A DNA stretch of 35,410 nt from an uncultured Lachnospiraceae bacterium (GTDB lineage Bacteria > Bacillota > Clostridia > Lachnospirales > Lachnospiraceae): positions 1-35,410 of the forward strand of contig CANQIW010000003.1 of the NCBI GenBank assembly GCA_947624055.1, written 5' to 3'. Position numbers and translations under genes: made by a program. How positions within the stretch are numbered: the first letter of the stretch is position 1; every line of letters begins with the position of its first letter. Below, piece after piece: positions 10,259 through 28,442 of this stretch. The notes beneath the pieces are model-generated. The model was not told the DNA's origin. It saw nothing but the letters and a program-made list of their open reading frames with translations, and did not search any database.

Positions 10259-13200
10259 TTACTTTTTAATCTTCACTTTCTTTACCGCCGAATATTTCCC
10301 GTACACCTTTTTCCCGGTGGAATCAATCCTGTATGCTCTTGCCTTAACGTAATACGTCTTTTTCTTTGCAAGCTTTTTCAGCGTTACGGAAAGCTTCTTC
10401 GTCGTTATTGTTTTCGTGTTTTTCTTTAGTTTCTTATTCGTGCCATATACGATTTCGTATCCCTCCGCCCCTTTTACCGCTTTGAGTTTCAGGATGACTT
10501 TATTCTTTTTGCTGTTCTTAATGGATTTGATCCCGGTTTTCCCGACTGTGACCGTTTTCTCATTCACGTTCGCTGTCCCGCTTATCGACGCCCCTGCTCC
10601 GATATCCGGACTCTGATCCGGCGTCGGCGGCTGTCCCGGGGTCGTCACAGACTGAGTTCCCTGAGTTGGCGTAGTAGTCGGTGTCTGCTGTATACCGGGC
10701 GTCGGGTCTGTGCTCGGTGCAGGCTGCACACCCGGAGTCGGCCGAACGTCCGGTTTCACCTGCTCGCTCTCCGAGAGCGCCCTGCCGCTTACAACAAAAG
10801 TTGAATTATGCGTCAGCTCGAATTCACACCAATGATCCGAGCCGTCCAGAATATACCGCGGCATATCCTCCAGAGACAGCGTCCCATCTTCTTTCAGAAA
10901 ATAGAGATACAGCGTATTCGAAATATTATACATATTCAGAATATAGTCAGACTTTATCCGCACGGTTGCTTTCCCGGGCAGAATACCATTCGGTGCAAAC
11001 ACAAGCCTGAGATCCGCTTCGGATTCTTCCCAGAACATGTATGAAGTACCCACCGTAACCGCGCAGTCAATGTCCTTAGTATCCAGAATGTCCTTTCCGT
11101 AGAATACCCACTGAATTCCATCGTTAGAAAGTATGAGCGTCTTGTCTGTTCCCTTGATAGCCTCAAACCATTCTTTTTTCACGATATGATTGCTGCTGTC
11201 AAAGTTGAGCATCGCCGCAGATCCATCTGGCATCTCCTCCAGTTTCGATGTAACGGACGAATTTGCTACCGAAGACTGAAAAGCAACCTCATATTCATCC
11301 TCAACGGTGAGACTGTTTCTGCCGTCATTCACATTGACATTTGCATAATAGATCTCGTCCTCCGCACTATGGCTCCAGCTTCCCTCATCGTAATTATAAT
11401 AATAATTGCTGCTGTTCCCCGCCTGATCTGTAAGGTATATGCCGCTCAGATAATATTCACCGGATTTTACATTAAACGGCACTGACATCTTAGTGGTATA
11501 TGTCCCGGAGAACATCAGCATTTCTGAGTTATAAAAGTCAAAATTGATCGAACGTGTACTGTCAGAAATATGCCGAAAATAGCCGTAGCAGGAAGTGATC
11601 CCCGTGTTCTCTTCGATCAGATCCAGACTGATCGTCACAACGCCCGGCTTTATCATTGACTCCTGAAATCTAGCTCCAGTAACTGCAGGAGCCACAGTAT
11701 CATAACCATTGGATTCTTTTGCAAGAATCCTGATTTCAACGCTAGTCTCACCGCCATCATATGAGATTGCTGTAATCGTCGTTTTTCCTGCTCCAACCGC
11801 CGTCACTTTTCCATACGCATCCACCCGCGCAATACTCTCATCGCTGCTGTTCCAAGTCAACAGAGGATAGGGACTGTTTGCGTCAAGCTTCCATTCCTTG
11901 TTCGGGTTATCATAGCTATATCCACAGACTTCCAAAACAATACTCTCACCGACAAAACACTCGGTTATCGCATTCTGCTCCATTGTGATATATTCAAAAA
12001 ATGCATTTTTCCCTAATTCAGTGACTCCTTCCGGCACAGCTAATTTCCCGGTGAAATAATTTCCGCCTAAAAATGCGCCGGTTCCAATGCTCCTGAGGCC
12101 TTTCGGCAGCGAAAGTTCGCCTGTAAATCCGCATCCAGAAAAGGCATTATCTCCTATGCTTGTCAAGTTTTCCGGAAGAGTCAGTTCTCCTGAAAATTTG
12201 CAATTAGAAAATGCATGATCCCCTATCTTTGTCCAGTCTTTCGGCAACTTCAGATTTCCTGTAAAACTGCAATTATTGAACGCATCGCTCCCCATGCTTT
12301 CCAGACCATCCGGCAGTTTTAAGTCCCCAGTAAAGCAGATTCGCGCATCCCAGCTTCCGGCAAAGGCGCTTTCACCTATGCTTTTCAAACTTTCCGGCAG
12401 TATCAACTCACCGGTGAATCCACACTCAGAAAAAGCACTGTTCCCTATGCTTATCAGACCTGCAGGCAAATCCAGACCACCCGTAAATCCACTCCTGTAG
12501 AAGGCGCTATTGCCTATACTTGTCAGTCCCTCGGGCAAGGTCAGATCACCCGAAAACCCACACCACGAAAAAGCACTATTTCCTATACTTGTCAGACCCG
12601 TCGGCAATGTCAGCTTACCCGTAAATCCACAATCAGAAAAAGCGTTGTCCCCTATACTCGTCAAACCCTTTGGCAAGGTCAGATCACCCGTAAATCCACA
12701 TTTAGAAAAAGCATTGTCGCCTATGCTCTTCAAACCCTCAGGCAATGCCAGATCACCTGTAAATCCGCACTCAGAAAAGGCGTTGTTCCCTATGCGCGTC
12801 ATTTTGTCCGGAAGAGTCAGTTCTCCTGAAAATTTGCAATCAGAAAATGCATAATCTTCTATCTCCGTCCAGCTCTTTGGAAGCTTTAGACCACCTGTAA
12901 AACTGCAATTATAAAATGCACCTGCCCCCATACTCTCCAGACCGTCCGGCAGTTTTAGATCCCCTGCAAAAATCCGTTCTTCCCAGTATCCGCCAGAGAA
13001 GGTATTTTTTCCTATACTTTTCAGGCTTTCCGGCAGTATCAGTTCACCCGTAAATCCGCATCCTGAAAAAGCGCTGTCCCCTATGCTGGCCAAACCCTCA
13101 GGCAAGGCCAACCTACCCGTAAATCCGCATCCGAGAAAGGCACTGTTTCCTATGCTTGTCAGTTTTTCCGGAAGAGCCAATTCTCCCGAAAATTTACACC

Positions 13201-14608
13201 CATAAAATGCATTATCACTTATTTCTGTCCATCCTCCTGGCAGCCTTAAACCACCCGTAAAGCTGCAATTATCAAACGCATCAATCCCCATGCTCTCCAG
13301 AGCATCCGGCAGCTTTAGGTCTCCTGTAAAACAGACTGGCTTACTCACGGCTCCGGCGAAAGCACCTCCACCTATTTTTTTCAGGCTTTCCGGCAATGTC
13401 AACTCACCAGTGAATCCACTACTGCCATAAAAGGCGTTGTTCCCTATACTTAGCAGACCTTCAGGCAAGGTCAAACCACCTGTAAACCCACAGCCTAAAA
13501 AGGCGCTGTCTCCTATTTTTGTCAGACCCTCATGCAAGGTCAGCCCGCCTGTAAACTCACACCCTGAAAAAGCGTTGTCCCCTATCTTTATCAAACCTGT
13601 CGGCAAGGCCAGACTGCCTGTAAATCCGCATCCGGAAAAGGCACTGTTTCCTATGCTTGTCAGTTTTTCCGGAAGAACCAATTCTCCCGAAAATCTGCAG
13701 TCATTAAACGCATTTTCATTTATCTCTGTCCATCCTCCTGGCAGCTTTAAGCCTCCTGTAAAACTGCATTTTCTAAACGCGTCTGTTCCCAGGCTCTCCA
13801 GACTATCCGGCAGTTTTAGGTCTCCTGTAAAACAGACTCTCTCATCCCCTGTTCCGGCAAAGGCACACCCACCTATACTTTTCAGGCTTTCCGGTAATGT
13901 CATATTCCCTGTAAATTCACTATCGATAAACGCGGCGAATCCTATACTCGTAACCTTATGTCCATCCACCTCATCCGGTATATTCAGGTCTCCTTTTTCT
14001 ACTCCAGTATATCCTGTTATCTCAGCAGTCCCATCCGCCAATACCTCATATTGAAAATAATTATCTTCTGCTACTCCCGCTGTGTTTGCAGACACAATAT
14101 CTGCCTCATCTATATTGATAACCTCTATATCAGCATCTGACACAGCTATTCCTGTGAGAAGCGTCCCTGTCTCAACGCCAGATTCCAGTTCTTCTGTCTT
14201 AGGCTGCTCTGATACTGCTTCGAAAAGATCGTCCTGCTCCTGTCCAAGCGGCTCCGCAGAAGCCTCTGTCTGCGGCAGTTCTGTTTCAGTATTTCCTGTT
14301 TCTATTTTTTCCGTCTCTCTTCTCTCCGTCTCCTGTGAATCTGTTTCTGTGCATTTCGTCACCATATCCTCTGCTTTTGCGTCCCCGTCTTCCGCACTTT
14401 CTGTCCGCATCGCATCTGTTCCATCTGTCTCCATGGCAACACTTTCTGCCGGTTCATCAACAACTGCGCCATCAACAGCTGACTCCTGTGCCACATCCGC
14501 TTCAGCATAATCCTCCACCAGGATTTCCTCCTCGAAGCCTCGCACCGGAACAGATGCCAGCACAAGCGTCGCTACCATGATCATACTGACTACTCTCTTC
14601 TTTTTCAT
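10259..14608 (-). CDS. BspA-type leucine-rich repeat surface protein with Big_2-like and C-terminal Fn3-like Lys-rich domain
   Basis: Signal peptide MKKKRVVSMIMVATLVLASVPVRG; about 26 LRR units (LTLPEGLTSIGNSAFSGCGFTGE); WNSSDESIARVDAYGKVTAVGAGKTTITA Big_2 motif; TP-rich linker; C-terminal KAVKGAEGYEIVYGTNKK...KTYYVKARAY. Track ORF begins at 14614. Confidence 0.9.
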   Translation of the reverse strand: MKKKRVVSMIMVATLVLASVPVRGFEEEILVEDYAEADVAQESAVDGAVVDEPAESVAMETDGTDAMRTESAEDGDAKAEDMVTKCTETDSQETERRETEKIETGNTETELPQTEASAEPLGQEQDDLFEAVSEQPKTEELESGVETGTLLTGIAVSDADIEVINIDEADIVSANTAGVAEDNYFQYEVLADGTAEITGYTGVEKGDLNIPDEVDGHKVTSIGFAAFIDSEFTGNMTLPESLKSIGGCAFAGTGDERVCFTGDLKLPDSLESLGTDAFRKCSFTGGLKLPGGWTEINENAFNDCRFSGELVLPEKLTSIGNSAFSGCGFTGSLALPTGLIKIGDNAFSGCEFTGGLTLHEGLTKIGDSAFLGCGFTGGLTLPEGLLSIGNNAFYGSSGFTGELTLPESLKKIGGGAFAGAVSKPVCFTGDLKLPDALESMGIDAFDNCSFTGGLRLPGGWTEISDNAFYGCKFSGELALPEKLTSIGNSAFLGCGFTGRLALPEGLASIGDSAFSGCGFTGELILPESLKSIGKNTFSGGYWEERIFAGDLKLPDGLESMGAGAFYNCSFTGGLKLPKSWTEIEDYAFSDCKFSGELTLPDKMTRIGNNAFSECGFTGDLALPEGLKSIGDNAFSKCGFTGDLTLPKGLTSIGDNAFSDCGFTGKLTLPTGLTSIGNSAFSWCGFSGDLTLPEGLTSIGNSAFYRSGFTGGLDLPAGLISIGNSAFSECGFTGELILPESLKSIGESAFAGSWDARICFTGDLKLPDGLESMGSDAFNNCSFTGNLKLPKDWTKIGDHAFSNCKFSGELTLPENLTSIGDNAFSGCGFTGELSLPKGLRSIGTGAFLGGNYFTGKLAVPEGVTELGKNAFFEYITMEQNAITECFVGESIVLEVCGYSYDNPNKEWKLDANSPYPLLTWNSSDESIARVDAYGKVTAVGAGKTTITAISYDGGETSVEIRILAKESNGYDTVAPAVTGARFQESMIKPGVVTISLDLIEENTGITSCYGYFRHISDSTRSINFDFYNSEMLMFSGTYTTKMSVPFNVKSGEYYLSGIYLTDQAGNSSNYYYNYDEGSWSHSAEDEIYYANVNVNDGRNSLTVEDEYEVAFQSSVANSSVTSKLEEMPDGSAAMLNFDSSNHIVKKEWFEAIKGTDKTLILSNDGIQWVFYGKDILDTKDIDCAVTVGTSYMFWEESEADLRLVFAPNGILPGKATVRIKSDYILNMYNISNTLYLYFLKEDGTLSLEDMPRYILDGSDHWCEFELTHNSTFVVSGRALSESEQVKPDVRPTPGVQPAPSTDPTPGIQQTPTTTPTQGTQSVTTPGQPPTPDQSPDIGAGASISGTANVNEKTVTVGKTGIKSIKNSKKNKVILKLKAVKGAEGYEIVYGTNKKLKKNTKTITTKKLSVTLKKLAKKKTYYVKARAYRIDSTGKKVYGKYSAVKKVKIKK
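12050..13960 (-). repeat. LRR-encoding tandem repeats (about 69 bp per unit, with longer inserted units)
   Basis: Direct recurrence of gtcagaccttccggcaaggtcagatcacctgtaaatccacactcagaaaaggc-like blocks. Confidence 0.85.
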
Positions 14609-14894
14609 TCTCATTCCCTCACTTTCATTCTTCTATGCCATCTAACCACAGGATCTGATCGCTTTCATTTCTAATCATAAAAATTGGACACCATCACTCT
14701 GAAAAATATTTTTTAAATGCTTTATAATCTATAAATTACACCCATCATCTCCTCTTACTTATTTAGGCTTCCATGGCAAATAACTCATTTTAAATTATAT
14801 AGGCAAATTATGTCTATATAGTTTATGGAATTATAGCATATTAGCCTATACAATTCAAGTAATATTGAATCAAACAGGCAGGTCTGGTAAGAAT

Positions 14895-15593: not shown

Positions 15594-17324
15594 TTAGAAG
15601 AAATCGTCTCCCTGCAGCGCGTCGAAGCCTTCCTCGCCGGTACGCACCTTCACGACGTTCGCCACGTTGTAGACGAAGATCTTGCCGTCGCCGATGTGGC
15701 CGGTGTACAGCGCCTTCTTCGCGGCCGCGATCACGGCAGCCGGGGAAACCTTGCTGACGACGACGTCCACCTGGATCTTCGGAAGCAGGTTCAGATCCAT
15801 CTGTACGCCGCGGTAGTACTCCGCCTTGCCCTTCTGTGTGCCGCAGCCGAGTACATTCGTCACCGTCATGCCCATGACGCCGATCTTGTTCAGCGCCTCC
15901 TTCAGCTCGTCGAACTTGCTCTGCTTTGCGACGATTGTAATCTTCGTGATGTTCGTATCGCTCGCAATCGTCTCGGTCGGCGTCTTCACCTGCACCGGAA
16001 CCGCGTCGTCCACATGAACCGGATTTTCCGGAAGCGCTGCGTCATACGTATCGCGCACGCCGCCGAAATTGTTGATGCTGGAGGTCTGCGCAAAGTCCGC
16101 GTACGCCGACGCAAGACCATGCTCGTGAATATCCAGGCCCTCGATCTCCTCTGTCACGGAAGCACGCAGGCCGATCGTGTGCTTCAGCACATTGAAGATG
16201 ATCGTCATCGTCACAGCCACCCACGCGATCACGCAAACAACACCGAGCAGCTGCGTGAGGAAAAAGTGGAAGCCGCCGCCGTAGAACACGCCAAGCTTTT
16301 CGCCTGTACCGAAATCATAGTAAGCAAACAGGCCGGTCAGCAGCGTACCTGTCATACCGCAGATGCCGTGAACGCCGACCGCACCCACCGGGTCGTCTAC
16401 CTTCAGCTTCTTGTCCACGAACTCGATGCCGAGCACGACCGCGAAGCCTGCCACGATACCGATGATCGCCGCGCCCACCGGGGTCACAGTGTCACAGCCT
16501 GCCGTGATCGCCACAAGGCCGGCCAGAGAGCCGTTCAACGTCATGGATACATCCGGCTTCTTATAACGCACCCAGGTGAAGATCATCACCGTCACGGTGG
16601 CAACCGCCGCCGCCAGGTTCGTGGTGTAGAAGATCCTTGCCGCCGTCGCCGCACTGTCTCCGGACATCGCCAGCGTCGAACAGCCGTTGAATCCGAACCA
16701 GCAGAACCACAGGATAAATACACCGAGCGCCGCAAGCGTCATGCTGTGCCCGAGGATCGCGTTCGGTTTGCCGTCTTTGCCGTACTTTCCGATACGAGGG
16801 CCAAGCACCGCCGCACCCACGCACGCAGCCACGCCGCCGACCATATGTACCGCCGTAGAACCCGCGAAATCATGGAAACCGAGCTGTGCGAGCCAGCCGC
16901 CGCCCCAGATCCAGTGTCCCGAGATCGGGTACACGAACAGGCTGATCAATGCGCTGTAGATGCAGTATGCAGAAAACTTCGTGCGCTCCGCCATCGCACC
17001 AGAAACGATGGTGGCCGAAGTCGCGCAGAATACCGTCTGAAAGATCATCGTCGCATAGTCGTCCGTCTTCATGCAGAACAGGTCGAGTCCGCCGATCAGC
17101 GCTCCCGTGCCGCCGAACATGATGCCGAAGCCGATGAACCAGTAGATCGGGGTACCGATACAGAAATCCATCAGGTTCTTCATCACGATGTTGCCCGCGT
17201 TCTTCGCACGCGTCAGACCGGTCTCCACCATCGCGAAGCCCGCCTGCATAAAGAACACCAGCGCCGCTCCGACCAGCACCCAGGTAGTGTCCAGTCCGGT
17301 AATCAAGGTTTTCAGTTCATCCAT
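15594..17324 (-). CDS. amt: Ammonium transporter (Amt) fused to a C-terminal PII (GlnK/GlnB-like) domain
   Basis: Amt motifs: MQAGFAMVETGLTRAKNAGNIVMKNLMDFCIG, DFAGSTAVHMVGG, GVHGICGMTGT. C-terminal PII: GVMGMTVTNVLGCGTQKGKAEYYRGVQMDLNLLPKIQVDVVV...GHIGDGKIFVYNVANVVKVRTGEEG. RBS GGAGAGGAGG precedes MDELK at 17324. Confidence 0.93.
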   Translation of the reverse strand: MDELKTLITGLDTTWVLVGAALVFFMQAGFAMVETGLTRAKNAGNIVMKNLMDFCIGTPIYWFIGFGIMFGGTGALIGGLDLFCMKTDDYATMIFQTVFCATSATIVSGAMAERTKFSAYCIYSALISLFVYPISGHWIWGGGWLAQLGFHDFAGSTAVHMVGGVAACVGAAVLGPRIGKYGKDGKPNAILGHSMTLAALGVFILWFCWFGFNGCSTLAMSGDSAATAARIFYTTNLAAAVATVTVMIFTWVRYKKPDVSMTLNGSLAGLVAITAGCDTVTPVGAAIIGIVAGFAVVLGIEFVDKKLKVDDPVGAVGVHGICGMTGTLLTGLFAYYDFGTGEKLGVFYGGGFHFFLTQLLGVVCVIAWVAVTMTIIFNVLKHTIGLRASVTEEIEGLDIHEHGLASAYADFAQTSSINNFGGVRDTYDAALPENPVHVDDAVPVQVKTPTETIASDTNITKITIVAKQSKFDELKEALNKIGVMGMTVTNVLGCGTQKGKAEYYRGVQMDLNLLPKIQVDVVVSKVSPAAVIAAAKKALYTGHIGDGKIFVYNVANVVKVRTGEEGFDALQGDDFF

Positions 17325-17347
17325 AATAATTCCTCCTCTCCACAAAC

Positions 17348-17477: not shown

Positions 17478-17615
17478 TCATTCTCTGATTTTGTAAAATA
17501 TACACAACAAGTCTTTCTCATTATATCGCATCGGCCGCACAGTCGATATCACCAAAACATCTGCCTCCACGATGCCATATGCCGCTGCCCGCATCCTCTC
17601 CTGAAAACCGATCAC
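17478..17615 (-). CDS. Possible 45-aa small protein overlapping the preceding ORF
   Basis: GTG start overlaps the upstream TGA stop (GTGA); AAGGAGGAG upstream; VIGFQERMRAAAYGIVEADVLVISTVRPMRYNEKDLLCIFYKIRE. Confidence 0.3.
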   Translation of the reverse strand: MIGFQERMRAAAYGIVEADVLVISTVRPMRYNEKDLLCIFYKIRE

Positions 17616-18109
17616 GCGGCAATCCTCTCCTCCTTGCTGTCGCGTCCCCCACCCAGCGCAGCGCGTGGAACGGGCGCTGTCTTTGCACATCTGTACTCCG
17701 GCGCGCACTGCGGATCCGGGCGAAGGCCTGCAAGACAATCCGCCAGCCAGCTCACGCCGATCAGCGCGGCCGCTGTCAGGATGACAAACAGCACCCACAG
17801 AAACGCCAGTACCGGAAGCGGCGACACGCTGACACGAATCCCAAAGGCCGCCAGCACAATGACCTCCTCCACAAGCCCTGCTGCCGCACAGAACCTCTGA
17901 CCATCCTTCGACAGCTCTCTGTATATATTTTCCTGATTGATCCTTCCGCTTTCGCCATAATCTTTTCTATGGATCCTTCTATAGTCTTCTCTATAATCTG
18001 CTCCATAGTCTTTTCGGCAATCTTTCCTGTATTCCTTCTTGTTGCCTCCTGCGTACTCTCTCGCGCAGGCTCCTCTGTTCTCCGGTCTGATATTCTCCGT
18101 ATTCCTCAT
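17612..18109 (-). CDS. Putative LexA-regulated small membrane protein, unknown family
   Basis: 165 aa from ATG 18109 with GGGGAG 9 nt upstream; N-terminal (DYRx)n repeats; hydrophobic PVLAFLWVLFVILTAAALIGVSWLADCLAGL. Supported by a strong promoter upstream; no family recognised. Confidence 0.5.
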   Translation of the reverse strand: MRNTENIRPENRGACAREYAGGNKKEYRKDCRKDYGADYREDYRRIHRKDYGESGRINQENIYRELSKDGQRFCAAAGLVEEVIVLAAFGIRVSVSPLPVLAFLWVLFVILTAAALIGVSWLADCLAGLRPDPQCAPEYRCAKTAPVPRAALGGGRDSKEERIAA

Positions 18110-18141
18110 CTTCGTACTCTCCCCAAATCTCCTTATTCGTT

Positions 18142-18226
18142 CGAACGCAAGTTCAGAACACTTGTTCTTTTTGCATTCTACTACAACTTCGGAAATTTTG
18201 CAAGTACTTTTTCGAACTTTTGTTCG
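18142..18226 (-). promoter_or_regulatory. SigmaA-like promoter with three LexA (SOS box)-like palindromes
   Basis: Minus TTGCAA (18198-18203), 17 bp, TAGAAT (18175-18180). Boxes: CGAACTTTTGTTCG 18213-18226; AGAACACTTGTTCT 18155-18168; GAACGCAAGTTC 18143-18154. Confidence 0.7.
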
Positions 18227-20612: not shown

Positions 20613-23600
20613 TCATTCTCGCTCCCTTCTCTTGAAGATCCCTGTCCACATCACCGCAAAGGATACTGCCAGAAGCAGGAGATATATGCCGATCGGAGTC
20701 CCATCCCCAGTCTTTGGAGTTTCTGCTCCCGCAGGCACATTTTTCGTCTCCGGCTCATCATCTTCTGTTCCAATCTCTGTCTCAGTCTCCGGGCTCTCCT
20801 CCACAAAGTCATTTGTGATTACGACCTCTCTCTGGAAATCCGTCACAGACATCTGGACAGATTCATGATCCAGGCTAATTGTAAATGCCAGACCGGAGTC
20901 CGGATCGAGCACATTTCCATGCTCATCTGTCTCTGCGACATAATATGTGACTGTTTCTGTCCCTGATGTACCCAGATGCACCGGCAGGATCTGGCTCGCC
21001 TTGCTGGCTCCTTCCATCCAGAGAGCAATCACATCGCCTTCGCGCTTTGTCAATGCAGCGTCAGTGAAAACTCCGGCATAGAACACTTCATCTGTGGCAT
21101 GATCCTTACCGCCTATCTGTACTTTCTTTGTAATCGTCAGTTCCCCACCATAGTAAAAGCCCTGCGGAATTTCATAAAATGTATTGTGGATCGCCACATG
21201 TCCATGATTGTGTTTTTTGGTCATCTGAACTGCATATCCGTCCGGATATTCCGCCAGATATGTCGCATTGTCAATCACACCGCTTCCTTTCAGTATTCCG
21301 TATTCATCCGTCTCTCCGACATAATACGTTGTATCCAGCTGCAGGTTATCGAATGTGACGGTTTCCGCAGCACTGTCAGAATAGTGCAAAGTTTTTACTT
21401 CCGATATACGCTGTGTCCTCGCCTCGTCGGAGAACAACGCAACGTAAAACCTGGTATCATTTGCGATCAGCGGATGACCCTCTGATGCATACAGGAGCTT
21501 CGTCACATCCAGATTTCCAAAAATATGTTCCTCTGTCTTCTCGGACTTTTTCGGAGTATACACATTTTCGAACGTAACTCCTCCTTCCGGATATTCTACC
21601 TGCGTGTTTAAGGTGCCGTCAAAATTATCTGTCACTATTACGCGCACAGTGAACGTCTTCTCGGAATATGTGACACGTTTTTCATTCTCCTTATCCTCCG
21701 CAATCTCATAAACATGCTCACCAACATCTGCAAGCGTATAGTGGAGTTCCGAGAAAGTAATACTTCCGTCCGCATGATTACCTGCCTTCTCTATCACATT
21801 TCCATTCTCCCGCAAGATGAAATGGAACTCATTGTCATGCATCGGCTCCTCTCGGCCACCGGTCAGGAGCTTCGTGCCAGAAAGGATTACCCCGCCTTCC
21901 GCTGTATAAGTGTTCGTAAATATGATTGCATCAGCAGGCACATCATTCTTTGCCACAGTACTGCTGACAGCGAGTTTTCCTTCTCCATCATCTGTCACGG
22001 CCACGGTTACGACGTAAACCGAAGTGTCTGCCGTGATGCCTTTACCGGAAGGACTTGTCTCCCTGACTTCATAGGTGTGCACATACGGCTCCGTATACTC
22101 AAACGTACCGAAGTTAAAGTCTTTTGCTGCCTTCGTCGCCGTCGCCTTCCTTGTCTCGGTCAGCTTATCCGGAATCTCCGTACCATTCCCGCTTCCATCC
22201 ATCGACGGCTGTGTCGTCTCCGTCAGCTCGAACGTAAATGCATCCGTATCCGTCCACTCACGACCCGTCAGCACCTTCGTACCTGCCACCGTCGCCGTCG
22301 TGCTGCCCGTCGTGTAGACATTGGTGAATGCCGCCTTCCCAGCCTCGGTTTCGGTCTCCTTGCCTTCCGCGTCCGTCTCCGTCCGCAGGTATGCTGTCTC
22401 CGCACTCAGCGTGCCGTCCCCGTTGTCCTTCACCGTCACGGTCACCTTGTAAACTGCTGCATCTTTCACAACGCCGCCAATCGCCGTATCTTTCTCCGCC
22501 ACCCTGTAGGTGTGTGTGCCCGGAACCGTGTATGGAATCGGCTCGAAGCTGAAGTTCTGGCTGTCCATTGTCGCTTCCGCAGTCAGAGAATTCTTCAGCG
22601 CATCCGGGATCTCTTTCTCTTTCCCGCTCGCGTCCTTCTCAGGCTGCGTCGTCTCCGTCAACTCGAACTCGAACTTGTCGTCCTCTTTCCACTCACGCCC
22701 TGTCAGCACTTTCGTGCCCTCGATCGTTGCGGTTGTGCTGCCCGCCTTATAGATGTTTGTGAACGTCATGCTGTCCGCCTTGGCTGTCGTCTCCTTGCCC
22801 TCTGCGTCCTTTGCCGTCCGCTCGTAGGAGACCACCTTCGCCTCTAATGTGCCGTCACCCTTATCCGTCACAGTCACGGTCACCGTGTAGACCGCCGCGT
22901 CCTTCGTGATGCCGCCGATTGTTGTATCTTTCTCCGCCACTTTGTAGGTGTGTGCACCCGGAACCGTGTATGGAATCGGCTTGAAGCTGAAGTTTTGGCT
23001 GTCCATTGTCGCTTCCGCAGTCAGAGAATCCTTCAGCGCATCCGGGATCTCTTTCTCTTTCCCACCTGCGTCTTTCTCAGGCTGCGTCGTCTCCGTCAGC
23101 TCGAACTCGAACTTGTCGCCCTCTTTCCACTCACGCCCCGTCAGCTCCTTCGTGCCCCCAATCGTCGCGGTCGTGCTGCCCGCCTTATAGATGTTTGTGA
23201 ACGTCATGCTGTCCGCCTTGGCTGTCGTCTCCCTGCCCTCTGCATCCTTCGTCGTCCGCTCATAGGAGGTCACCTCCGCCTCTAATGTGCCGGTACCTTT
23301 ATCCGTCACGGCCACCGTCACCGTGTAGACCGCCGCGTCCTTCGTGATGCCGCCGATTGTTGTATCTTTCTCCGCCACTTTGTAGGTGTGTGTACCCGGA
23401 GCCGTGTACGGGATCGGCCCGAAGCTGAAGTTCTGGCTGGCTTTTGTCGCTTCCGCAGTCAGAGAATCCTTCAGCGCATCCGGGATCTCTTTCTCTTTCC
23501 CGCTCGCGTCTTTCTCTGGTTTCGTCGTCTCCGTCAGCTCGAACTCGAACTTGTCGTCCTCTTTCCACCCACGACCCGTCAGAACCTTCGTGCCCTCGAT

Positions 23601-26600
23601 CGTCGCCGCTGTCGGCTCCACTGTGTAAGTATTCGTGAACGCAAGAGCCGTATTAAACTTCGTTTCTGAGCCCTCGCCGCTTACGATCTGCCCACTGACT
23701 GAATTCATTTTCACACCGCCGACTTTCACCGTATACCCTGGTGTCTCCGCCTCTGTCACCGTGTAAATCAAATCATAAGGAAGCTCTTTCAATATGATCG
23801 TCTGTCCATCGGCCAGCGTTATGTTTTTCTTCCCTTCGTCTCCTTCTTTAAATTCGAGAACTTCAGGAACTCCACTTTCAATCTTCGAACCGTCATTTGA
23901 CTTAACCTTTTCATAAGAAATAAAACCAACAAACGGTTCGTCGCCTTTCTTCAGCTCAACTGTAAAGGTAAATTCTTTTCCTTTGTCCTTCGGCGAGATG
24001 TTGTTGATTGTGGTCTTACTGATGCTCAGCTCGCCGACAAGCTGATTATCAATCGTATATGATGTAGCCGCGTCATCGAGAACCGTACTCTTATAATGCG
24101 GAGCATCGTCCTCCGACAATTCCTCCTCCACGGTATAAACATATGTTTCCCCTGCACTGTCATTAATCGGAAGATCTGTAAAAGTAACACCTGGCCAGCT
24201 TCCATCTTCCTGTTTTTTCACAGTCTGATACTCAACCCTCTCTTTGTTGCGCAGAAGCCAGATGTCAATGGAATCAGGCCGTATCTGCTCATAGCCGGTA
24301 TCAGTCCATGTCTTTGTCACAGAAATACTTGTAGTTTCCGGTTTACTCCCAAAATAAACTGTTCCATTGCTGCCAATACCGCCTCCGCGCGTATCGGATG
24401 TATTTCCGCTTATTAGCACGGAACCGTTTTCCCCCGGTTTCGCGTCCGTGTGCAGAACCAGTTTAGTCTGGTTATTCTGATACCGGGATGCAGAAAGTTC
24501 ATTTCCGTCTGCATCCTTCCAATGATACGGCGTTCCATCATACATAAATCCGGAAACTTCATACACAGGATTTCCCGGCTGAGAAGGATCCTTGTCTAGC
24601 AGGACATCATTGCTGCCGCCGTAGGCAGTGTTTGCGTAAATCGCTGTGCTGTTCGGATAAACATAGGTCATGGACGTCTCGCAACCCGCAAATCCGCCGC
24701 CATTATTGAAAATATCACCAGCCTTTACCGAGTTGCCTGTAATTTCTGCATTGTACAGGTAAAGTTTCGCGGACGGATAATATTTTCCCAGCACTGTACG
24801 AGGCCCGTTCACATAAAAACCGCCGCCGCCAAAACGTCCCCCATGGCTCTGGTTTTTTGTTATGGAACCACCGCTCACTTCTGCAGTATTCGCACTCTGT
24901 ACATAGATACCGCCGCCCTCATGCTCCGCAATATTCCCGCTTACAGTGCCGTTCGTCATGGTCAGCTTCGCTCCACCGTTTCCAACAGCACTTGTTACTT
25001 TTCCTCCCACACAAATACCTGCGCCCACATATGCGGTATTGTCGGAAATGGAGCCTCCGCTCATTGTCATGATTGCACCGGATAAGACTGCGACTCCGCC
25101 TCCGGCATTGTCCGGCTCCGCTCCGGAAATTGCCGTGCCTTCCACTCCGTTTCCGGTGATCGAACCGCCACTCATTTCAAACGAACAGCCTTCTCCAAAC
25201 AGACAGATTCCGCCGCCATGCCATGCATGGTTGTCGCTTACGCTTCCACCCGTCATCGTTACATCAGCATTGTATGCCTCCACGGCTCCCCCGCAATCTG
25301 CGCTTAACGTTCTGTCATTATTTGTAAGCGTCGCACCTGCCCTGATGTTTAATGTTCCGCCGCTCAGATAAATCAGCGCCGATGATACTTTCAGAAGATC
25401 GTCTTTGCCGTCTATCGTGATATTTTCCAGATTCAGCGTACCGCCGCTAATCCGGATCAACTCCCCCTTAAAGAGCGGATCACGCATCAGCTTCGCATCC
25501 CCGTCGAGGCTCCAGTTTGCACTCCCTGAAACCGTAACCGTATCCATCACATAAATGCCGTCCAGCTTTTCTCCATCCGAAAGTTCTTTATTCTTTTCCT
25601 CCAGAATCTTCTTCGCCGCTTCAAACGTCTTCACCGGATAATCTCGTGTCAGTCCGAGTTCAGAACCATTATTCTCCTCCGAAGGATCCGTGCCGTGAAT
25701 ACCGTCCAGATATACGCCGTTCAAAGTCAGCCTCACAGCCACAATTCTATCTTTCTCACCGCTCCGCTCAATCTTTTTTACGATCACCAGACCATTTGCC
25801 CCCGGAAGGGTAATCTTCCCCGGCAAAGTCTCGTCAAGGTTATATCCCTCAATGAGAGTTACCATCGGCTCCGGATCTGCAGCTTCCGTAGAATTAAGCT
25901 TTTTTAGTACATCACCCGCTAGAATGATCGTCATTTTGTCCGAGATCTCAAAGCCTTCACCGGCCGTTATGAATTTTCCTTCTGCCAGTCTGACCTTTTT
26001 TACCTGCGTTTTCCCATTAAGTATCAGGCTGTCGCCCGAATGATCGACACTGGGAGCATTTACTCCATCATCAATCGTCAGGGAACCCTTGTTTAATATG
26101 GCATAGGCGCCTGTTCCCCGCGCCAGCACAGAGCCATCTCCAGTCAGCTTCAGCGAAGCATTTTCCGACACCGTTAAAGCTGTTCCGGACTTTCCCTGAA
26201 GCGTATGTCCTTTGTTCAGATCGATTGTAATATCCTTTCCTTCAGGAATCACAACATCCTCTGTGATCGTCTTTCCTGTATTGTCCTCGTCGCCCGCCGT
26301 CAGCAGGATCGTATCGCCGTCTTCTGTATTTGTCACTGCCTTGGTAACCGTTTCACAGAGCACATCTGTATCTTTGTTCTTTGCCACGGTCCGGTTCTCC
26401 GGACCGGCCGTGAGGTAAAACTTATACGTTCCATTGTCGTATGGAATTGTAGCATTCCGGTAGAGATCGTATCCGTCCAGATCCTCCTTGATCACGATAC
26501 CATTGCGTGTATCGTTCCAACTGTATTTGCTGAAATCCTTGTCGCCGTCATGCATCTTGGCGGCTCCCGGTATCCAAATCGAGCATTTTTCCGCATACCC

Positions 26601-28442
26601 GGCGTCATAGGGAAGCCACAGGTCATTTCCATTATTGCTGTCCGTCGTCGTATTGCCATAGATTGCACTGTTTTCGTCCACGGTAAGGTGTACGTAGGAC
26701 GCTGATGTATAGTCAGCATACTCATCATACGCCAGAATTCCGCCTGTCAGACTGCCGCTATTGTCCGTTATTACTGTATTATTCAGTTGTACATCCACAA
26801 ACATATCATAATAGGAGCATCGGTAACCATTGCTTACAACAGCGAGACCGCCCGCGCTGTATCCGTCGCCAAACAGACTTTTCGCTATATTGCCCTCGAT
26901 CCTGCAGTTCGTAAAAGTCGTGTTTGCCCCCAGCAGTATGGTAGAGCCGTCTGTCGCCGTATTGCCGGTAAAATTACAGCCAGTAAATACAGCGCTGCCT
27001 GAGCTGATATAAACAACAGCGCTTGTACTGCTGTTATCCGTAAACGTGCAGTTCTCCGCATTCAAAACCGCGTCATTATCCCACAGGCAAAGCGCGCCAT
27101 ACGCACCTGTATATTCACTACCGGTATGTCTGTTTTCGCTGAATTCGACCCCCTTTAAGTCCGCGCTGCCTTCAAGATACAGACCAGAAGTTCTGTTTGT
27201 TGAAGTGTTCCCTGATACCACCAGACCATTTACCGCCGTCAGCTTGTTTCCTTTAAAATAAATTCCGCCTCCCTGGGCGCAGCTGTTGTCCTTCACCTGA
27301 CATCCAACATGAAATGTCACTTCACACCCTTTTCCGGCATAAAGGCCGCCGCCTTTATCATCGCTTCCATTACCTGTATTTTCGTTACCGTTGATTGTGG
27401 TATACTCCGCCACAAACGAGCTCTGCTCCAGATAAATGCCGGCACCGCTTCCGTCTGCTTTGTTACCGCTGATCACGGTTCCCGCCTCTGTCTTCAGGCT
27501 TCCGCCTCTCACATAGATACCACCGCCGTTGCTTCCAGAACCGCTGACCACATTATCCATGATCTGCACACTGCTCAGCGTGACATTGGCATTCTCCGCA
27601 TAAATGCCGCCGCCATTACGGTTCCCTGTAATGGAAGCCCCGGTGATCGTGCCGTTTCTCAGCGTCACATTTCCACCCGTTATTTTGAATATACTGTCGG
27701 TGGTATTCCCCTCTTTCGGAGATACCGTATGTCCTCCCATATCCAACGTAAAGCTCTTATTATCGCTCGTATTATCGACCGACACATTCTCATTCACATC
27801 GTCGAGCAGTTCAATCGTCTCACCGTCGCTCACCTCTGCAAGTGCATCGCCCAGCGTCGGATAAGTCTCTTCCCCAATCTTCGCCACGCCGTCAGACGCA
27901 TACAGCGCGATATTGTTTGTTACCCTGCGCCCGGCTTCTTCGCTCCACTTTACGCCGGCATATTCCGGGTGCTCTTCCTGCAGCTTCTTGATCTGCACGC
28001 CCAGCCTGGTATTGTACTCCACGCCCGTGTACTCTTCGATCAGATTATTCTCCGGCGCGTCCTCGCTCTCCGGATCCTGCTGATAAAAGCTGACCGTATA
28101 CGGTCCCATCAGGCCAAGCGGAGAAAACACCGTGCCGACGTCCCCGTTTTCTTCTACCTCGTCATCCATCGGTACATTGATCGGCGTCCCGCCTGCAGAG
28201 ATCACGCTGACCTCTGGCTGTGCGGAATCCTTGTCCCCGTCCGACGTTCTATCTGCAAATTCTGTATTTGCATCGCTGGTAAGCGCCGCATCCGAAGCCG
28301 GTGCGTCCGCCTCCTGCGCGATCGTGATCGAGTTCCACGGAACGCTCAGGACAAATGCGAGAACCCACGCAAGGATCCGCATCTGTAATGTTGTTCGCGT
28401 TCTTCTATTATTCTTTGTTTTCCCGTTCTTCACCTGTTCCAC
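20613..28442 (-). CDS. Giant sortase-anchored adhesin: right-handed beta-helix region, Spy0128/FctA-type isopeptide pilin modules, SpaA/Cna_B-like domains, TPKTG sorting signal
   Basis: 2609 aa; signal peptide; GGGIYVRGGSL / MSGGSITGN repeats; TIEGTKVLTGREWKEDDKFEFELTETTQP...MTFTNIY modules; C-terminal ETPKTGDGTPIGIYLLLLAVSFAVMWTGIFKRRERE. Confidence 0.92.
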   Translation of the reverse strand: MEQVKNGKTKNNRRTRTTLQMRILAWVLAFVLSVPWNSITIAQEADAPASDAALTSDANTEFADRTSDGDKDSAQPEVSVISAGGTPINVPMDDEVEENGDVGTVFSPLGLMGPYTVSFYQQDPESEDAPENNLIEEYTGVEYNTRLGVQIKKLQEEHPEYAGVKWSEEAGRRVTNNIALYASDGVAKIGEETYPTLGDALAEVSDGETIELLDDVNENVSVDNTSDNKSFTLDMGGHTVSPKEGNTTDSIFKITGGNVTLRNGTITGASITGNRNGGGIYAENANVTLSSVQIMDNVVSGSGSNGGGIYVRGGSLKTEAGTVISGNKADGSGAGIYLEQSSFVAEYTTINGNENTGNGSDDKGGGLYAGKGCEVTFHVGCQVKDNSCAQGGGIYFKGNKLTAVNGLVVSGNTSTNRTSGLYLEGSADLKGVEFSENRHTGSEYTGAYGALCLWDNDAVLNAENCTFTDNSSTSAVVYISSGSAVFTGCNFTGNTATDGSTILLGANTTFTNCRIEGNIAKSLFGDGYSAGGLAVVSNGYRCSYYDMFVDVQLNNTVITDNSGSLTGGILAYDEYADYTSASYVHLTVDENSAIYGNTTTDSNNGNDLWLPYDAGYAEKCSIWIPGAAKMHDGDKDFSKYSWNDTRNGIVIKEDLDGYDLYRNATIPYDNGTYKFYLTAGPENRTVAKNKDTDVLCETVTKAVTNTEDGDTILLTAGDEDNTGKTITEDVVIPEGKDITIDLNKGHTLQGKSGTALTVSENASLKLTGDGSVLARGTGAYAILNKGSLTIDDGVNAPSVDHSGDSLILNGKTQVKKVRLAEGKFITAGEGFEISDKMTIILAGDVLKKLNSTEAADPEPMVTLIEGYNLDETLPGKITLPGANGLVIVKKIERSGEKDRIVAVRLTLNGVYLDGIHGTDPSEENNGSELGLTRDYPVKTFEAAKKILEEKNKELSDGEKLDGIYVMDTVTVSGSANWSLDGDAKLMRDPLFKGELIRISGGTLNLENITIDGKDDLLKVSSALIYLSGGTLNIRAGATLTNNDRTLSADCGGAVEAYNADVTMTGGSVSDNHAWHGGGICLFGEGCSFEMSGGSITGNGVEGTAISGAEPDNAGGGVAVLSGAIMTMSGGSISDNTAYVGAGICVGGKVTSAVGNGGAKLTMTNGTVSGNIAEHEGGGIYVQSANTAEVSGGSITKNQSHGGRFGGGGFYVNGPRTVLGKYYPSAKLYLYNAEITGNSVKAGDIFNNGGGFAGCETSMTYVYPNSTAIYANTAYGGSNDVLLDKDPSQPGNPVYEVSGFMYDGTPYHWKDADGNELSASRYQNNQTKLVLHTDAKPGENGSVLISGNTSDTRGGGIGSNGTVYFGSKPETTSISVTKTWTDTGYEQIRPDSIDIWLLRNKERVEYQTVKKQEDGSWPGVTFTDLPINDSAGETYVYTVEEELSEDDAPHYKSTVLDDAATSYTIDNQLVGELSISKTTINNISPKDKGKEFTFTVELKKGDEPFVGFISYEKVKSNDGSKIESGVPEVLEFKEGDEGKKNITLADGQTIILKELPYDLIYTVTEAETPGYTVKVGGVKMNSVSGQIVSGEGSETKFNTALAFTNTYTVEPTAATIEGTKVLTGRGWKEDDKFEFELTETTKPEKDASGKEKEIPDALKDSLTAEATKASQNFSFGPIPYTAPGTHTYKVAEKDTTIGGITKDAAVYTVTVAVTDKGTGTLEAEVTSYERTTKDAEGRETTAKADSMTFTNIYKAGSTTATIGGTKELTGREWKEGDKFEFELTETTQPEKDAGGKEKEIPDALKDSLTAEATMDSQNFSFKPIPYTVPGAHTYKVAEKDTTIGGITKDAAVYTVTVTVTDKGDGTLEAKVVSYERTAKDAEGKETTAKADSMTFTNIYKAGSTTATIEGTKVLTGREWKEDDKFEFELTETTQPEKDASGKEKEIPDALKNSLTAEATMDSQNFSFEPIPYTVPGTHTYRVAEKDTAIGGVVKDAAVYKVTVTVKDNGDGTLSAETAYLRTETDAEGKETETEAGKAAFTNVYTTGSTTATVAGTKVLTGREWTDTDAFTFELTETTQPSMDGSGNGTEIPDKLTETRKATATKAAKDFNFGTFEYTEPYVHTYEVRETSPSGKGITADTSVYVVTVAVTDDGEGKLAVSSTVAKNDVPADAIIFTNTYTAEGGVILSGTKLLTGGREEPMHDNEFHFILRENGNVIEKAGNHADGSITFSELHYTLADVGEHVYEIAEDKENEKRVTYSEKTFTVRVIVTDNFDGTLNTQVEYPEGGVTFENVYTPKKSEKTEEHIFGNLDVTKLLYASEGHPLIANDTRFYVALFSDEARTQRISEVKTLHYSDSAAETVTFDNLQLDTTYYVGETDEYGILKGSGVIDNATYLAEYPDGYAVQMTKKHNHGHVAIHNTFYEIPQGFYYGGELTITKKVQIGGKDHATDEVFYAGVFTDAALTKREGDVIALWMEGASKASQILPVHLGTSGTETVTYYVAETDEHGNVLDPDSGLAFTISLDHESVQMSVTDFQREVVITNDFVEESPETETEIGTEDDEPETKNVPAGAETPKTGDGTPIGIYLLLLAVSFAVMWTGIFKRRERE
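22320..23630 (-). repeat. Three near-identical 438-bp tandem repeats encoding isopeptide-type modules
   Basis: Landmark gttYtggctg occurs at 22554, 22992 and 23430 (exactly 438 bp apart) with long flanking near-identity. Confidence 0.9.

What the first reader, a model, noticed from the sequence alone, without database searches (positions are those of the whole stretch)
17478..18226. Triple LexA-box promoter driving an unrecognised small membrane protein: candidate SOS-induced checkpoint unit
Seen: on minus, TTGCAA-17-TAGAAT with CGAACAAAAGTTCG just upstream of -35, AGAACAAGTGTTCT at the expected start site, and a third GAAC-TTGC-GTTC directly after it. All three fit the Firmicutes LexA/DinR pattern GAAC-N4-GTTC. 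The first ORF encodes 165 aa with a (DYRx)n cytoplasmic-type segment and a strong hydrophobic segment. Its TGA overlaps GTG of a 45-aa ORF. Known SOS-induced division inhibitors (YneA, SosA, SidA, DivS) are small, often membrane proteins under LexA and share little sequence. Inference: this could be an undescribed inhibitor or another damage-response membrane effector.
Basis: partly seen in the sequence, partly recalled or inferred. Interest (0 to 1): 0.72.

Follow-up and report, generated by a model that had tools for sequence, protein, structure and literature searches.

The report
DNA-damage-controlled small membrane protein family
This gut bacterium carries a small membrane protein gene, found so far only in its genus, behind three copies of the DNA-damage repressor's binding site; the sites and the gene have been kept together across the genus, and the genus lacks the usual division-blocking gene beside lexA, so this protein is a plausible unrelated substitute that pauses division while DNA is repaired.

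Summary
Three exact GAAC-N4-GTTC sites lie within 83 bp (18143-18225) around a sigma-70-like promoter, and they are the only ones in the window. The host LexA motif is confirmed: the same site precedes recA, dinB and a DNA-repair radical-SAM gene in this genome. The 165-aa product belongs to an undescribed family found in 29 of 47 genomes of this Lachnospiraceae genus and, by profile, in no other genus sampled. Upstream, 21 of 28 orthologs keep exact LexA boxes (26 of 28 relaxed; control motifs 0 of 28). The 64-residue core is under purifying selection and is predicted as a two-helix membrane hairpin, not a single segment. The 45-aa ORF is not conserved. In many relatives a phosphoglycolate-phosphatase-like gene follows. 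Most other Lachnospiraceae genera (22 of 27) have a YneA-type TM+LysM gene divergent from lexA; this genus has none there (0 of 26). Best reading: a LexA-repressed membrane effector, most likely a non-homologous SOS division inhibitor replacing YneA. Regulation is close to certain by comparative evidence; the division function is inferred (about 0.45). Against it: 18 genus members lack the gene, and those examined lack lexA-linked YneA too.

The parts
18213..18226 (-). LexA box 1, CGAACAAAAGTTCG, just upstream of -35
   Evidence: exact consensus; conserved position across orthologs
18198..18203 (-). -35 hexamer TTGCAA
   Evidence: CTTGCA conserved in the ortholog promoter alignment
18175..18180 (-). 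-10 hexamer TAGAAT
   Evidence: TGTAGTAGAAT element conserved in close relatives
18155..18168 (-). LexA box 2, AGAACAAGTGTTCT, over the expected start site
   Evidence: 58-60 bp from box 1 in most orthologs with both boxes
18143..18154 (-). LexA box 3, GAACTTGCGTTC, 13 bp after box 2
   Evidence: also present in the closest orthologs L018-L021, L067, L068 and in L026, L028
18117..18124 (-). likely ribosome binding site GGGGAGAG
   Evidence: sequence; conserved before the ATG in close orthologs
17612..18109 (-). CDS, 165-aa SOS-controlled two-helix membrane protein
   Evidence: orthologs in 29 of 47 genus genomes; core dN/dS mostly 0.03-0.33
17843..17908 (-). predicted helix 1 (residues 68-89), membrane segment with a near-invariant acidic residue
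   Evidence: AlphaFold pLDDT about 90 or above; hydropathy; alignment
17726..17818 (-). predicted helix 2 (residues 98-128), hydrophobic segment with invariant W105
17478..17615 (-). 45-aa ORF of the finding; probably not a gene
   Evidence: no open counterpart in L018-L022, L067, L068
17351..17424 (-). separate promoter (17424-17395) and terminator-like hairpin (17380-17351) before amtB, ending the unit

Best explanation
A LexA-repressed SOS gene. LexA sits on two or three boxes that bracket the promoter. RecA-driven LexA cleavage after DNA damage releases a strong promoter and produces a small membrane protein with a variable charged N-terminal tail and a conserved two-helix hairpin, both ends predicted in the cytoplasm. 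The hairpin most likely acts inside the membrane on the septal wall-synthesis machinery (for example FtsW/PBP2B/FtsL) to delay division, doing the job of YneA, which is missing from its usual place beside lexA in this genus. Shown comparatively: LexA boxes, their conservation, a real protein-coding gene, hairpin prediction, absence of lexA-linked YneA. Inferred: induction by damage, membrane insertion and topology, division target.
For: Three exact boxes around a promoter. The host has lexA. The same motif precedes recA, dinB and TIGR03916, and recA and TIGR03916 in genus members G025 and G016, recA also in G012. Orthologs in 29 of 47 genus genomes, none convincing in 295 order genomes. Exact boxes at 21 of 28 orthologs, relaxed at 26 of 28, four control motifs at 0 of 28. 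Box spacing 58-60 bp largely held while protein identity falls to 20-35%. Genomes without the gene have no double-box promoter. Core dN/dS mostly 0.03-0.33. Two hydrophobic segments in all 26 orthologs; helix pair predicted for two members. YneA-type TM+LysM gene divergent from lexA in 22 of 27 other genera and in 0 of 26 members of this genus.
Against: No experiment. 18 of 47 genus genomes, including complete ones, lack a detectable copy, and those examined also lack lexA-linked YneA, so the function is dispensable or met in another way. Known Gram-positive SOS division inhibitors have one TM segment and an extracellular C-terminus, most with LysM, and sit beside lexA (PMC6851548); this protein fits none of these. 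Orthologs L034 and L036 show no recognisable box. A YneA moved elsewhere in the genome was not excluded by a whole-genome search. The comparison of genera reflects one lineage, so its p-value overstates independence.
Confidence: 0.47

Rival explanations
1. SOS-induced membrane effector that is not a division inhibitor, such as a modulator of a transporter, protease or cell-wall enzyme in the damage response, possibly linked to the phosphoglycolate-phosphatase-like gene that follows it in many relatives.
For: In 16 of 25 orthologs with an identified downstream neighbour, a HAD phosphatase closest to phosphoglycolate phosphatase models follows, overlapping the stop in two. HD and amidase genes follow directly or next in others. 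The conserved acidic residue in helix 1 could serve a transport or binding role.
Against: The phosphatase is below equivalog cut-offs and is no longer beside the gene in this genome. No known partner or domain.
Confidence: 0.28
2. SOS-induced membrane toxin that lowers membrane potential and slows growth, like TisB or DinQ of Escherichia coli.
For: Small hydrophobic product, LexA control, fast-evolving tails.
Against: TisB and DinQ are single short TM peptides with RNA antitoxins; this one is 73-192 aa with two segments, a conserved motif (YRELT, FLW) and no RNA family detected nearby. An antisense RNA was not specifically tested.
Confidence: 0.14
3. Phage-derived or holin-like gene left in the chromosome under LexA control.
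For: Two-helix hairpin; three members match the Pfam family Phage_holin_3_6 weakly (best E 0.0006).
Against: No relatives in viral contigs, phage or plasmid records; no PHROG family; conserved chromosomal neighbourhood.
Confidence: 0.04
4. The boxes are chance palindromes and the ORF is not a damage-response gene.
For: About 26 exact GAACN4GTTC sites occur in the genome and many lie inside genes.
Against: Conservation at orthologs and empty control motifs, clustering, purifying selection.
Confidence: 0.02

Closest known systems
YneA (Bacillus subtilis, Listeria) and the lexA-linked YneA-type proteins of other Lachnospiraceae
   Same: LexA-controlled small membrane protein; likely same role
   Different: No LysM, no extracellular domain, two helices instead of one, not beside lexA, no sequence similarity detected
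SosA (Staphylococcus aureus)
   Same: LexA-controlled small membrane protein without LysM
   Different: SosA has one TM and an extracellular C-terminus and lies beside lexA (PMC6851548); this is a predicted hairpin at another locus
SidA (Caulobacter)
   Same: Acts essentially from within the membrane, which is the mode proposed here (from established knowledge)
   Different: 29-aa single TM, alphaproteobacterial, unrelated sequence
TisB / DinQ (Escherichia coli)
   Same: LexA-controlled hydrophobic membrane peptides
   Different: Single short TM toxins with RNA antitoxins; no similarity

Membership tests
LexA/SOS regulon | Host LexA and its cognate box at the promoter | tested here: met
   lexA found; three boxes at the promoter; same box at recA, dinB, TIGR03916
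LexA/SOS regulon | Box conserved at orthologous promoters | tested here: met
   21 of 28 exact, 26 of 28 relaxed, controls 0
LexA/SOS regulon | Induction by DNA damage and LexA binding | not testable with these tools
   needs EMSA and RT-qPCR
YneA family | Single TM plus extracellular LysM | tested here: not met
   no LysM by Pfam; two hydrophobic segments
YneA family | Gene adjacent to lexA | tested here: not met
   own lexA lies on another contig beside a DUF1002 gene
SOS division inhibitor (functional class) | Blocks septation when produced | not testable with these tools
   needs expression and microscopy
SosA family | One TM, extracellular C-terminus, lexA-adjacent | tested here: not met
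   hairpin prediction and location
Phage holin | Relatives in phages, lysis cassette context | tested here: not met
TisB/DinQ-type toxin | Short single TM toxin with RNA antitoxin | tested here: not met
   two segments; no RNA family, though a novel antisense RNA is not excluded

The most novel reading that the evidence does not exclude
A new, two-helix class of SOS division inhibitor that replaced YneA in one Lachnospiraceae genus by non-homologous displacement, under a promoter bracketed by LexA boxes.
Probability: 0.4. Interest if true: 0.74.

Novelty: new variant of a known kind. Interest (0 to 1): 0.6.

Why it matters
SOS-induced division inhibitors are known from few model species and share little sequence, so homology searches miss them. 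Here conserved regulation, not sequence, reveals a candidate in a major gut family, together with evidence that the usual YneA gene is missing beside lexA in that lineage. If confirmed, it would show that the damage checkpoint effector is swapped for unrelated proteins while LexA control is kept, and would add a hairpin-type effector whose target can be tested directly.

Tried and rejected
Homology by Pfam, NCBIfam, PHROGs, PADLOC, PDB sequence and PDB fold: nothing significant. Relatives outside the genus by profile in 295 order genomes: only marginal hits, several with stops inside. Phage, plasmid and viral collections: none. The 45-aa ORF as a second gene: not conserved. Operon with amtB: rejected, since a separate promoter and a terminator-like hairpin intervene. 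Loss of the gene as one event: absences are scattered on a weakly supported LexA tree (7 changes).

Full report
What is there. On the minus strand, three exact GAAC-N4-GTTC sites lie at 18214-18225, 18156-18167 and 18143-18154. They are the only exact copies in 35.4 kb; dinucleotide shuffles give a mean of 0.44. Box 1 lies just before the -35 (TTGCAA), box 2 lies over the expected start point after the -10 (TAGAAT), and box 3 follows at once. The gene starts at 18109 and encodes 165 aa. The downstream 45-aa ORF has no open counterpart in the closest relatives. A separate promoter and a terminator-like hairpin precede amtB, so the unit in this genome is probably one gene.

Does the host use this motif? 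Yes. The genome is a 2.5-Mb, 78% complete MAG with one lexA. The same palindrome lies 18 bp before recA, before dinB and twice before a TIGR03916 radical-SAM DNA-repair-type gene. It also precedes recA and TIGR03916 in genus members G025 and G016, and recA in G012. The lexA promoter itself carries weaker variants: AAACATTTGTTT is conserved across the genus, and GAACATATGTGC in close relatives.

Family and conservation. The single protein and then a profile found orthologs in 29 of 47 genomes of the genus. In the search of 295 genomes of the order, the six hits other than the window's own gene were marginal, and I judge them not to be homologs. The named relatives are uncultured Lachnospiraceae MAGs. 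The alignment shows a variable, charged, low-complexity N-terminal tail and a conserved core: (Y)RELTxxGxxxCAxAGLLEE..GI..P..VLxFLWxLFxxLTA, with L66 and W105 invariant in 26 sequences. All 26 have two hydrophobic segments with a loop of 3-10 residues. AlphaFold gives helices 68-89 and 98-128 with pLDDT near or above 90 in the window protein, and the same helix pair with lower confidence in an 85-aa member. Fold search gave nothing significant. Core dN/dS is mostly 0.03-0.33, and tails evolve faster. This is a genuine gene.

Regulation is conserved. Of 28 orthologs, 21 have at least one exact box upstream and 26 have at least a relaxed one; four control motifs scored 0 of 28. The spacing of boxes 1 and 2 (58-60 bp, bracketing CTTGCA and the -10) is kept in most members although the proteins are down to 20-35% identical. 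In the 18 genus genomes without the gene, no double-box promoter exists. Two members (L034, L036) keep the gene without a recognisable box.

Neighbourhood. Close relatives share the upstream GH1 gene and downstream amtB. In 16 of 25 orthologs with an identified downstream neighbour, the next gene is a HAD phosphatase closest to phosphoglycolate phosphatase models but below their cut-offs, overlapping the stop codon in L027 and L040. In L032, L038, L039 and L041 an HD-domain gene and an amidase follow. This suggests that the gene once headed a small operon, with the phosphatase lost beside it in the window's lineage. A link of phosphoglycolate phosphatase to repair of 3'-phosphoglycolate ends is background knowledge and was not tested.

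The YneA comparison. In other Lachnospiraceae genera the gene divergent from lexA is usually a YneA-type protein with one TM segment and LysM: 22 of 27 by a LysM signature (LysM confirmed by Pfam on one). In this genus the count is 0 of 26, and the neighbour is mostly DUF1002. Exact-box scans with inspection of fetched regions in four genus genomes found no LexA-boxed YneA elsewhere, but not every listed site in G025, G016 and G012 was inspected and weaker boxes were not searched. Fisher p is 2e-10, but the genus is one lineage, so this counts as one evolutionary event.

How it most likely works. Damage triggers RecA, LexA is cleaved, and the bracketed promoter fires. The hairpin inserts with both ends predicted inside, because positive residues flank both ends and the loop is short. 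YneA needs its TM domain to reach FtsW and its LysM domain to block synthesis (PMC13396833). The present protein has no room for such an outside domain, so an intramembrane mode, as for SidA, is more likely if it blocks division. Function is inferred from regulation, size, location and the missing YneA.

Limits. Eighteen genus members lack the gene; those examined also lack lexA-linked YneA, and the absences are scattered. So either other effectors exist or the checkpoint is dispensable. No wet-lab evidence exists.

Verdict. Regulation: about 0.95. Division inhibitor: about 0.45. The finding is a new variant of a known kind, with no described family to file it under.

Noticed in passing
L107, L109, L111, L113, L116, L117, L121, L122 (other Lachnospiraceae genera); L014/L015 in the own genome: Paired LexA boxes bracketing the promoter most often precede a radical-SAM gene resembling TIGR03916 (rSAM_link_UDG; family match confirmed for the own-genome copy), an uncharacterised DNA modification/repair protein; it looks like a core member of the SOS regulon in this family.
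   Followed up: partly
L020-L028, L030, L031, L033, L035, L037, L040, L042: A phosphoglycolate-phosphatase-like HAD gene follows the SOS gene, overlapping its stop in L027 and L040.
   Followed up: partly
L171 around 1539 (G025:C31:31138): A 102-aa unknown ORF has a LexA box pair (GAACAAACGTTC plus a weaker AAACGTATGTTC) at its promoter.
   Followed up: no
window 15594-17345 (-): Ammonium transporter fused to a C-terminal P-II domain, behind its own promoter and a hairpin leader.
   Followed up: no
window 10259-14614 (-): 1451-aa BspA-type leucine-rich repeat protein with a Big_2 domain.
   Followed up: no
window 20613-28442 (-): 2609-aa surface protein with beta-helix, Cna_B and five FctA isopeptide domains, several of the repeats closely similar.
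   Followed up: no
L022, about 130-220 bp after the SOS gene stop: Tandem KEKQ-coding repeats (AAAAAGAAAAGC) just before the HAD gene in G003.
   Followed up: no
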